A model generated the notes under the pieces. That model ran no database searches. It was given only the letters and a program-made list of their open reading frames with translations, and was not told where the DNA came from. This document shows, piece by piece, positions 13,936 through 15,883 of a DNA stretch of 42,114 nucleotides. Source of the DNA: an uncultured Clostridia bacterium (lineage in GTDB: Bacteria; Bacillota; Clostridia; Oscillospirales; Oscillospiraceae); the NCBI GenBank assembly GCA_945875335.1, contig CAMCKD010000006.1, forward strand, positions 1-42,114, read 5' to 3'. Both the position numbers and the translations under genes were made by a program. The first letter of the stretch is position 1; every line of letters starts with the position of its first letter.

Positions 13936-13979
13936 AGGAAGCACATCATTACTCTTTTGGGGAGTAGGATGTGCTTCCT
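13936..13979. terminator. hairpin terminator after the GGGtGRT gene
   Basis: A 12-bp perfect stem (13936-13947 with 13968-13979) has T-rich sequence on the minus-strand exit (TATTTTTGCG), so it can end the minus-strand operon. A T-rich exit also exists on the plus strand. Confidence 0.75.
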
Positions 13980-14043: not shown

Positions 14044-15042
14044 TTACTTCAGGCTCTCAGCAACGGCCACAGCCACGGAGACGGTAGCGCCGACCATGGG
14101 GTTGTTGCCCATGCCCAGGAAGCCCATCATTTCCACGTGAGCGGGGACGGAGGAGGAACCGGCGAACTGGGCATCGCTGTGCATACGGCCCATGGTGTCG
14201 GTCATGCCGTAGGAAGCGGGGCCAGCGGCCATGTTGTCAGGATGCAGGGTACGGCCCGTGCCGCCGCCGGAGGCCACGGAGAAGTACTTCTTGCCCTGCT
14301 CGATGCATTCCTTCTTGTAGGTACCGGCGACAGGATGCTGGAACCGGGTGGGGTTGGTGGAGTTGCCGGTGATGGAAACATCCACGCCCTCATGGTGCAT
14401 GACGGCAACGCCCTCGCGGACATCGTCAGCACCGAAGCAGCGGACAGCGGCCCGCTCGCCGTCGGAATACTTGTACTCCTTGACGATCTTCAGCTCGCCG
14501 GTGTAGTAGTCGAACTGGGTCTGGACATAGGTGAAGCCATTGATCCGGGAGATGATCTGAGCAGCGTCCTTGCCCAGGCCGTTCAGGATGACCCGCAGGG
14601 GCTCCTTACGAGCCTTGTTGGCGGAGCGGGCGATGCCGATGGCACCCTCAGCAGCAGCGAAGGACTCGTGGCCAGCCAGGAAGGCGAAGCACTTGGTCTC
14701 GTCCCGCAGCAGCATGGCACCCAGGTTGCCGTGGCCCAGGCCGACCTTCCGATCCTCGGCAACGGAGCCGTCGATGCAGAAAGCCTGCAGGCCGATGCCG
14801 ATGGCCTCAGCAGCCTCGGCGGCGTTCTTCACGCCCTTCTTCAGAGCGATTGCAGCGCCCACGGTGTAAGCCCAGCAGGCGTTCTCAAAGCAGATGGGCT
14901 GAATGCCCTTGACGATCTCGTAGGGGTCGAAGCCCTTGGACTGGCACAGCTCGCGGCACTCTTCCACGGAGGACAGGCCATACTGCGCGAGGACACCATT
15001 GATCTTGTCAATTCTTCTTTCGTAACTTTCAAACAAAGCCAT
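14044..15042 (-). CDS. GGGtGRT family protein (unknown function)
   Basis: The 332-residue soluble protein contains the defining motif SVASGGGTGRTLHPDN near residue 272 and a Gly/Ala-rich C-terminus (GFLGMGNNPMVGATVSVAVAVAE). Databases name the family only by this motif. Several cysteines are scattered through it (SVEECRELCQ, PICFENACW, AFCIDGS, TKCFAF, VRCFG), compatible with metal or cluster handling but not organised as a known site. It lies 15 bp downstream of a NifU-like scaffold with an AGGAGG site. Codon use is very biased, like yebC and prs, implying abundant expression. The fixed pairing suggests the scaffold delivers Fe-S clusters to, or works with, this protein; that is inference. 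Confidence 0.88.
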   Translation of the reverse strand: MALFESYERRIDKINGVLAQYGLSSVEECRELCQSKGFDPYEIVKGIQPICFENACWAYTVGAAIALKKGVKNAAEAAEAIGIGLQAFCIDGSVAEDRKVGLGHGNLGAMLLRDETKCFAFLAGHESFAAAEGAIGIARSANKARKEPLRVILNGLGKDAAQIISRINGFTYVQTQFDYYTGELKIVKEYKYSDGERAAVRCFGADDVREGVAVMHHEGVDVSITGNSTNPTRFQHPVAGTYKKECIEQGKKYFSVASGGGTGRTLHPDNMAAGPASYGMTDTMGRMHSDAQFAGSSSVPAHVEMMGFLGMGNNPMVGATVSVAVAVAESLK

Positions 15043-15057
15043 CGTCGTGTCCTCCTC

Positions 15058-15750
15058 TTATTCGTGGCGGGGGTCAATGTACTTGGGTGCGTTGTCGAAA
15101 CGACCGTAGTGACCCATAGCCTTCTTGTAGGCGGTGTTGGCGTCGTCGCCCTTCTTCATGAAGTCCATCATCTTGCCCAGGTTGACGAACTCGTAGCCGA
15201 TGATCAGGTTGTCATTGTCCAGAGCCACCCGGGTGACATAGCCTTCTGCCATTTCCAGATAACGGGGGCCCTTGGCGCGGGTGGCGAACATGGTGCCCAC
15301 CTGGCTGCGCAGGCCCTTGCCCAGGTCTTCCAGGGAAGCGCCAACCACCAGGCCGCCCTCAGAGAATGCGGACTGGCTGCGGCCATAGACGATCTGCAGG
15401 AACAGCTCCCGCATAGCGGTGTTGATGGCGTCGCACACCAGGTCGGTGTTCAGCGCCTCCAGAATGGTCTTGCCGATGAGAATCTCGGCAGCCATGGCGG
15501 CGGAGTGGGTCATGCCGGAGCAGCCGATGGTCTCCACCAGAGCCTCTTCGATGACGCCTTCCTTCACGTTCAGGGTCAGCTTGCAGGCACCCTGCTGGGG
15601 AGCACACCAGCCGATACCGTGGGTAAAGCCGCTGATGTCCTTGATTTCCTTGGCCTGCACCCACTTACCCTCTTCGGGAATGGGAGCGGGGCCATGGTAT
15701 GCGCCCTTGGCGACGGAGCACATATTCTGTACTTCTGCACTGTAAATCAT
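15058..15750 (-). CDS. NifU/IscU-like iron-sulfur scaffold protein, GGGtGRT-associated
   Basis: The 230-residue protein has the IscU/NifU-N fold signatures: GWCAPQQGACKLTLNV (equivalent to the first cluster-ligand loop) and TIGCSGMTHSAAMAAEILIGKTI-EAL (second Cys loop and helix). Another Cys is in LVCDAINTAM. It is longer than IscU, with an extra N-terminal stretch and a C-terminal domain ending PKYIDPRHE. The start at 15750 is chosen because AAAGGA precedes it and the upstream open frame runs through the leader hairpins. It is first in a two-gene operon, behind a perfect-consensus promoter and a structured leader. Confidence 0.87.
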   Translation of the reverse strand: MIYSAEVQNMCSVAKGAYHGPAPIPEEGKWVQAKEIKDISGFTHGIGWCAPQQGACKLTLNVKEGVIEEALVETIGCSGMTHSAAMAAEILIGKTILEALNTDLVCDAINTAMRELFLQIVYGRSQSAFSEGGLVVGASLEDLGKGLRSQVGTMFATRAKGPRYLEMAEGYVTRVALDNDNLIIGYEFVNLGKMMDFMKKGDDANTAYKKAMGHYGRFDNAPKYIDPRHE

Positions 15751-15772
15751 GGCAAAATTCCTTTCTTTCAAA

Positions 15773-15848
15773 AGGCGGTCGCCCGCCTTAGGATTACGAT
15801 TCCGAAATTGCGGATGGGGAACAAACCGCCTAAACAGCCGCAATCTCC
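15773..15848 (-). promoter_or_regulatory. structured 5' leader, attenuator-like, upstream of the nifU-like gene
   Basis: In the minus-strand transcript, ATTGCGG (15844-15838) pairs with CCGCAAT (15813-15807). AGGCGG (15788-15783) forms a tetraloop hairpin with CCGCCT (15778-15773), followed by UUUU, just before the ribosome site. A third segment, AGGCGGU (15831-15825), inside the loop of the first hairpin can pair with ACCGCCU (15779-15773) instead. The terminator-like hairpin and the alternative pairing are therefore mutually exclusive. Sequence shows the pairings; a regulatory role is inferred. Confidence 0.45.
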
Positions 15849-15854
15849 TGCTAC

Positions 15855-15883
15855 ATTATACATTCTGTGAAGAGAAATGTCAA
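15855..15883 (-). promoter_or_regulatory. perfect-consensus sigma-A promoter of the nifU-like/GGGtGRT operon
   Basis: The minus strand carries TTGACA (15878-15883), a 17-bp spacer and TATAAT (15855-15860), all at consensus. This predicts very strong transcription. Confidence 0.9.

What the first reader, a model, noticed from the sequence alone, without database searches (positions are those of the whole stretch)
14044..15883. GGGtGRT/NifU-like module: a strongly expressed Fe-S pair of unknown function
Two adjacent genes encode an IscU/NifU-type scaffold with conserved cluster-ligand loops and a protein known only by its GGGtGRT motif. They share a perfect-consensus promoter and highly biased codons, so the cell invests heavily in them, yet no reaction is known. 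The scaffold-client arrangement suggests the GGGtGRT protein receives a cluster or that both form one metalloprotein.
Basis: partly seen in the sequence, partly recalled or inferred. Interest (0 to 1): 0.75.

Follow-up and report, generated by a model that had tools for sequence, protein, structure and literature searches.

The report
Portable iron-responsive two-gene anaerobe module
Two neighbouring genes, one related to an iron-sulfur scaffold and one of unknown fold and function, are found together again and again in unrelated, mostly oxygen-avoiding bacteria, look strongly expressed, and probably make one abundant iron-sulfur protein whose job has yet to be worked out.

Summary
GGGtGRT (PF14057; 14044-15042, minus strand) and an IscU-fold protein (15058-15750, start ATG 15750) form one unit with a perfect promoter, conserved in relatives, and a strong terminator. 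Codon bias ranks 7th and 14th of 281 genes, beside acetyl-CoA-synthase genes. Pairing is essentially strict: among 792 genomes from four groups, 50 of 51 GGGtGRT carriers also hold the partner (the exception is a contig end); no partner was found alone. No third gene is conserved; the pair appears to have crossed phyla. The partner is no ordinary scaffold: altered first ligand loop, LPPVK-like segment missing, extra C-terminal domain, three universal Cys (49, 77, 106). GGGtGRT has no universal Cys; its confident AlphaFold model has no good PDB match (query TM up to 0.31 in rows shown). In print, both rise with iron (proteins in Clostridium pasteurianum, transcripts in Bacteroides thetaiotaomicron). 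Best reading: one constitutive two-subunit Fe-S protein, cluster on the IscU-fold subunit, ligand site on GGGtGRT, made in bulk when iron is plentiful. Contact, metal and reaction are untested. Scaffold-client transfer is less likely.

The parts
14044..15042 (-). GGGtGRT protein (PF14057), 332 aa; predicted helical N-terminal part (1-112) and Rossmann-like alpha/beta part (118-331); the GGGTGRT loop (259-265) runs into a low-confidence stretch (261-277)
   Evidence: Pfam 657.8 bits; AlphaFold2 pLDDT 89.1, pTM 0.90; conservation
15058..15750 (-). IscU/NifU-fold protein, 230 aa, with an extra C-terminal domain; Cys49, Cys77, Cys106 in all sequences aligned, Cys56 in all but one
   Evidence: Pfam NifU_N 23.4 bits; HH comparison with IscU sequences, E 4e-9; AlphaFold2 pLDDT 90.7 and Foldseek ranks 1-28 all IscU/SufU; Cys counts
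15855..15883 (-). sigma-70-type promoter TTGACA-17-TATAAT, 12 of 12
15772..15789 (-). leader hairpin just upstream of the ribosome-binding site; arms vary with some compensating changes in near relatives, flanks constant
   Evidence: 11 leaders chosen by eye from 29: 97% of cells paired, covariation score above all 500 shuffles; 2 pairs changed on both sides (23 of 500 shuffles as high); no Rfam match at gathering threshold
15043..15057 (-). 15-nt intergenic gap with a GGAGG ribosome-binding sequence
   Evidence: sequence; estimated gap of 2-45 nt in 76 of 78 loci
13936..13979 (-). intrinsic terminator after GGGtGRT: 12-bp outer stem, inner stem, then ATTTTTG (not listed by the simple scan)
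   Evidence: fold -26 kcal/mol, z -7.56, 0 of 200 shuffles

Best explanation
SHOWN: the two genes are an essentially obligate, self-contained transcription unit with strong expression signals and a tree that suggests movement between phyla. From print: both rise with iron supply in two distant bacteria. INFERRED: the two proteins form one stable two-subunit Fe-S protein. The IscU-fold subunit (repurposed, not an assembly scaffold) holds a cluster on Cys49, Cys77 and Cys106, which by order in the sequence are likely counterparts of the three IscU cysteines (only Cys77 aligns directly; positions in space were not compared), leaving a site open for substrate, for His44 or Cys56, or for a residue of the partner. 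GGGtGRT supplies an alpha-helical part plus a Rossmann-like part whose conserved loops (GHES 124-127, NGLGKD 154-159, GNSTN 226-230 with R233/H236, GGGTGRT 259-265) lie at or after strand ends and so should line one pocket, the usual place for a nucleotide or phosphorylated ligand. Together they act as an abundant redox or catalytic protein of anaerobic metabolism, made when iron is plentiful and dropped when it is scarce. The reaction is not identified.
For: Strict pairing. No family recurring consistently among 1335 neighbouring ORFs of 78 loci. Codon bias in the class of CODH/ACS and formate-THF ligase. IscU fold with three Cys in 107 of 107 sequences but scaffold features lost. GGGtGRT: confident model, conserved polar loops at strand ends, no universal Cys. 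Iron-dependent expression in C. pasteurianum (proteins) and B. thetaiotaomicron (transcripts). Both seen in gut and rumen metaproteomes, in one with adjacent locus tags; one study calls GGGtGRT highly expressed.
Against: No direct evidence of contact: no complex model could be run, and the distance correlation between the two proteins (r 0.73) is expected from shared descent alone. No evidence of metal. The iron response could reflect storage or sulfur handling as well as an enzyme. Rossmann-like is a weak call: no PDB match with E below 0.001, query TM at most 0.31 in the 50 rows shown. The glycine-rich loop lies in the least confident part of the model (261-277). Both models rest on alignments of close sequences (62% identity or more to the query). 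A chicken-gut proteome reports NifU from fewer taxa than GGGtGRT.
Confidence: 0.45

Rival explanations
1. Iron-sulfur reserve or buffer: the pair parks Fe and S (cluster or FeS) when iron is plentiful and releases it later, which would explain iron induction and abundance.
For: Iron induction of both; strong expression signals and high expression in vivo; a second, Cys-free half that repeats the strand-strand-strand-helix-helix order in the model.
Against: Only five Cys in the window's partner protein, three or four of them conserved; GGGtGRT has an enzyme-like set of invariant polar residues; neither sequence shows a Cys-rich or acidic store-like region (sequence).
Confidence: 0.2
2. Scaffold and client: the IscU-like protein builds a cluster and hands it to GGGtGRT.
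For: IscU fold; strict pairing; in Collinsella aerofaciens the pair lies about 1.9 kb downstream of sufD-sufS-sufU with a transposase between.
Against: LPPVK-like segment and CGD Asp missing; no GGGtGRT Cys is universal; SufD/SufS matches nearby in only 1 of 148 loci, many with flanks of just 1.5 kb; an ordinary scaffold is present in the same genome; iron-induced rather than iron-repressed.
Confidence: 0.17
3. Persulfide or sulfur-transfer pair, SufU-like (zinc or free thiols rather than Fe-S).
For: SufU structures are among the Foldseek hits; three conserved Cys.
Against: The Asp of the CGD loop is absent; no SufS match in 147 of 148 loci (flanks are short in many); strong iron regulation in print.
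Confidence: 0.1

Closest known systems
IscU / NifU N-terminal domain / SufU (PF01592)
   Same: Fold of residues about 40-120; core 54-102 aligns with IscU 34-82 (E 4e-9); Cys77 in the GC motif equals the second IscU Cys; Cys106 at a helix start resembles the third (by order, not aligned)
   Different: Scores far below the NCBIfam cut-offs of the three models hit (26.6 against 187.9 bits for the best); first loop is C-A-P-Q-Q-G-A-C instead of x-C-G-D; the Cys77-Cys106 spacing is 15 residues shorter than in the genome's own IscU, where the LPPVK-like motif lies; extra domain about 125-230; partner is GGGtGRT, not a desulfurase
PF14057 GGGtGRT family
   Same: Full-length member, 657.8 bits
   Different: Nothing: ordinary member of a family for which I found no function
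FtsZ / tubulin (GGGTG[TS]G phosphate loop; motif role recalled)
   Same: The GGGTG string; FtsZ and tubulin among many weak fold hits (E 0.03-0.1, query TM 0.20-0.31)
   Different: No profile relation (hhalign probability 1.8%, and the GGGTG strings do not align); the weak hits also include unrelated Rossmann proteins

Membership tests
PF14057 GGGtGRT | Score above Pfam gathering cut-off over the whole model | tested here: met
   657.8 bits against 27, positions 1-326 of 327
IscU/NifU scaffold | IscU-type fold | tested here: met
   AlphaFold2 pLDDT 90.7; Foldseek ranks 1-28 all IscU or SufU, though none with E below 0.001 (best 1.1e-3) and target TM about 0.4-0.5
IscU/NifU scaffold | Three cluster cysteines | tested here: inconclusive
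   Cys49, 77, 106 in 107 of 107 sequences, but only Cys77 aligns column by column with an IscU Cys
IscU/NifU scaffold | C-G-D first loop with its Asp | tested here: not met
   Loop reads CAPQQGAC in the window; no Asp (canonical set)
IscU/NifU scaffold | LPPVK chaperone motif (motif and role recalled) | tested here: not met
   Own-genome IscU has GLPPHKLHC; partner goes from LNTDL straight to VCDA
IscU/NifU scaffold | NCBIfam equivalog cut-off for NifU, IscU or SufU | tested here: not met
   26.6, 21.6, 21.2 bits against 187.9, 192.4, 92.5
IscU/NifU scaffold | Assembles and transfers clusters | not testable with these tools
   needs protein
FtsZ/tubulin | Homology around the GGGTG loop | tested here: not met
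Fe-S protein complex | Bound cluster and stable heteromer | not testable with these tools
   only single chains could be folded

The most novel reading that the evidence does not exclude
An undescribed two-subunit Fe-S enzyme of anaerobic metabolism in which an IscU scaffold fold has been turned into the permanent cluster-bearing subunit of an enzyme, paired with a catalytic subunit of a fold without a solved relative; abundant, iron-gated, and passed between phyla as a ready-made two-gene cassette. Proteins logged as 'nitrogen-fixing NifU' in gut and rumen metaproteomes would then partly be this enzyme.
Probability: 0.38. Interest if true: 0.85.

Novelty: new variant of a known kind. Interest (0 to 1): 0.62.

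Why it matters
[quoted passage not shown] that its NifU entries are this family is my inference. Strict pairing, iron response and the conserved residues make direct experiments simple in a laboratory commensal.

Tried and rejected
Tubulin/FtsZ relation of the GGGTG loop: rejected. Internal duplication of the IscU-like protein: the model's second half repeats strand-strand-strand-helix-helix, but profile comparison of the two halves gives E 0.35, and C-half against IscU 0.022, so suggestive only. Known RNA family or riboswitch in the leader: only tRNAs at gathering threshold in the window and 13 relatives' loci. Conserved third gene: none; the largest cluster is 7 of 78 loci on mixed strands, and clusters of 4-5 loci are mostly near relatives of the window (rpe upstream) or a small Cys-rich protein (ORFs of 80 aa or more, E 1e-15, at most 5 kb each side). 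Cysteine-ligated cluster wholly on GGGtGRT: its best Cys (118, 89, 202) are absent in 2, 3 and 5 of 110 members. PDB sequence relatives of GGGtGRT: none at E 1 or less with the single sequence, best 0.82 with the profile. Viral fold library: best E 6.9e-3. Separate IQ-TREE trees timed out; FastTree on 103 shared loci gave 34 of 100 splits shared (0.2 in label shuffles), with 4 of 24 and 4 of 26 strong splits in conflict, so mostly but not wholly joint descent. Methanogen iron paper PMC8351635: none of my terms found.

Literature seen: passages only (find) of PMC10434189, PMC5395762, PMC11204068, PMC7035244, PMC9942572, PMC6043501, PMC7671984, PMC12643325, PMC13041051, PMC12101220, PMC12014591; listings of the searches. 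None of the 9 papers holding the word GGGtGRT gives a function in the passages I saw; preprints and most subscription journals are not in that library.

Full report
What is there. On the minus strand of the window a perfect TTGACA-17-TATAAT promoter lies at 15883-15855. It is followed by a leader of about 100 nt with a small hairpin (15772-15789), a 230-aa IscU/NifU-like gene (ATG 15750 to 15058), a 15-nt gap holding a GGAGG sequence, the 332-aa GGGtGRT gene (15042-14044), and a strong terminator at 13979-13936 (-26 kcal/mol, z -7.56, 0 of 200 shuffles). The mechanical ORF list starts the first gene at TTG 15843, 12 nt past the -10 box; I reject that start because of this position and because sequence upstream of the ATG is not kept in relatives.

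Is it more than chance? PF14057 matches at 657.8 bits. Of 92 upstream regions, 19 carry a 12/12 promoter and 15 an 11/12 one, against 0.07% and 0.4% in dinucleotide shuffles; the regions are not independent (window and L002 are the same place, L012 and L063 appear to be the same contig, most strong sites are in near relatives). The hairpin arms change in step in 11 near relatives that I chose by eye from 29 leaders (97% of cells paired; covariation score above all 500 shuffles; two pairs changed on both sides, reached by 23 of 500 shuffles). This favours a real stem, for instance an mRNA stabiliser (inference). Codon bias: a self-consistent index on 281 genes of my own crude calling ranks GGGtGRT 7th and the partner 14th. 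Five of the six genes above GGGtGRT were named: glycogen phosphorylase, CODH/ACS gamma, formate-THF ligase, branched-chain aminotransferase, CODH/ACS alpha/beta; CODH/ACS delta ranks 9th. By raw distance from average usage the pair ranks only 17th and 36th.

Pairing. In 299 genomes of the window's phylum, GGGtGRT is in 19 and the partner in the same 19, 20 copies each. In the phylum of a Prevotella: 1 and 1 of 198, the Prevotella itself. In its order: 29 and 28 of 148; in the odd one, G565, the contig ends 77 nt upstream of GGGtGRT (L158). In the phylum of a Desulfoarculaceae genome: 3 and 3 of 148. The centres were chosen as carriers, and the Prevotella is in two sets; so 792 distinct handles, 51 with GGGtGRT (E 0.001), 50 with the partner (E 1e-10), none with the partner alone. 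One of these, G632, keeps only remnants of both, side by side as one deletion would leave them. In 40 relatives, 25 of them (the window's genome counted) of its own genus, 32 have GGGtGRT; the 12 loci taken from these all have the partner. Of 80 named loci (the best 80 of 582), 78 have the partner directly upstream on the same strand, five of them cut by the contig's end; the other two have at most 54 nt of upstream sequence. Estimated gaps are 2-45 nt in 76 of the 78; two Paludibacter loci have 472 and 492 nt. Vibrio, Persicobacter and Collinsella also have the pair side by side.

Neighbourhood and spread. Among 1335 ORFs in the flanks of 78 loci no family recurs consistently beyond near relatives: the pair is the whole module. 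In a tree of 60 concatenated pairs (60 of the 80 loci), Succinivibrionaceae nest within Bacillota (branch 98/89) and Treponema within Bacteroidales (96/95), and the 8 phyla need 13 changes where 7 would do. Binning errors in metagenome assemblies or paralogues could add to this. In the best 80 loci, GGGtGRT proteins from other phyla are 78-89% identical to the window's; more distant copies fall to 62-70%. In Collinsella aerofaciens the pair lies about 1.9 kb downstream of sufD-sufS-sufU, with a transposase between; none of the other 147 loci searched matches SufD or SufS, though many have only 1.5-kb flanks. Carriers are mostly gut, rumen and sediment bacteria by their titles; Vibrio and Persicobacter are exceptions, and oxygen preference was not tested.

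The IscU-like protein. Its core 54-102 aligns with IscU 34-82 (E 4e-9), and the AlphaFold2 model (pLDDT 90.7) has IscU or SufU in PDB ranks 1-28, best E 1.1e-3. Cys49, Cys77 and Cys106 are present in 107 of 107 sequences, Cys56 in 106 (Ala in Vibrio). Against the genome's own IscU and others it lacks the CGD aspartate, has 15 residues fewer between the second and third Cys, where the LPPVK-like motif lies, and has an extra domain of about 105 residues. NCBIfam scores are far below cut-off. So it works on an IscU frame but is not a member of the scaffold equivalogs. An ordinary IscU/NifU exists in the same genome (174.8 bits).

GGGtGRT. No PDB sequence relative. The AlphaFold2 model is confident (pLDDT 89.1, pTM 0.90) except 261-277, a stretch that begins inside the name-giving loop. 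Foldseek finds no match below E 0.001 and a query TM of at most 0.31 in the 50 rows shown, many of them Rossmann-type proteins (the class names are my knowledge). Polar residues identical in all 110 sequences (rows with a gap there left out) include H104, H125, E126, K158, D159, N227, N230, R233, H236, R264, D269, R286, D290, H302, N313, N314; no cysteine is (C118 in 108, C89 in 107, C202 in 105 of 110). Several of these sit at or just after predicted strand ends, which suggests one ligand pocket (inference; coordinates were not at hand). The FtsZ-like GGGTG string is not backed by homology.

Published hints. In iron-depleted B. thetaiotaomicron, BT0173-0174 transcripts fall 11- to 12.8-fold (PMC10434189, passages). 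In C. pasteurianum the GGGtGRT spot is 7.1-fold and the NifU-related spots 2.4- and 3.7-fold higher with iron in early phase, by my reading of a flattened table (PMC5395762, passages). A chicken-gut study calls GGGtGRT highly expressed in unrelated taxa, but reports NifU from fewer of them (PMC11204068). A human faecal metaproteome lists both with adjacent locus tags, both down (PMC12014591); another has a GGGtGRT and a NifU-domain protein both down (PMC13041051). In the one Prevotella and one Paludibacter genome tested, the pair's protein is the only NifU_N match, so 'nitrogen-fixing NifU' of Bacteroidetes in rumen proteomes (PMC6043501) is probably this protein; I did not check accessions.

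Judgement. Strict pairing, very strong conservation, codon bias in the range of central enzymes and induction by iron point to a bulk Fe-S protein made of both gene products rather than to a helper. The steps not shown are contact, metal, ligand and reaction.

Noticed in passing
L113:4526-5000 and L114:4506-5000: In two Paludibacter loci the gap between the two genes holds S23-like sequence (name recalled, no family search): an open frame of 121 aa in L114, no such open frame in L113.
   Followed up: partly
L151:2491-2887, L154:1771-2024: Some Bacteroidales carry short, hydrophobic, membrane-protein-like reading frames (31-65 aa) between the two genes; L156:1297-1491 has similar-looking sequence without a listed frame.
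   Followed up: partly
L029:14129-19589 (own genome, contig C13): The window's genome encodes CODH/ACS gamma, alpha/beta and delta subunits with very biased codons (ranks 2, 5 and 9 of 281), so it can probably run the carbonyl branch of the Wood-Ljungdahl pathway.
   Followed up: partly
L013, L014, L016, L038: Several IMG/VR viral contigs begin at or near the gene pair, and 6 GenBank 'Bacteriophage sp.' records match the gene, as if prophage or bin boundaries were cut there.
   Followed up: no
L075, L079, L080, L082, L121: A small protein with a Cys-rich look (family not searched) lies near the pair on the same strand: downstream in four of these loci, upstream in one.
   Followed up: no
window:12704-13558: A gene of the Rpn / PD-(D/E)XK nuclease-transposase family lies downstream of the pair's terminator on the same strand.
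   Followed up: no
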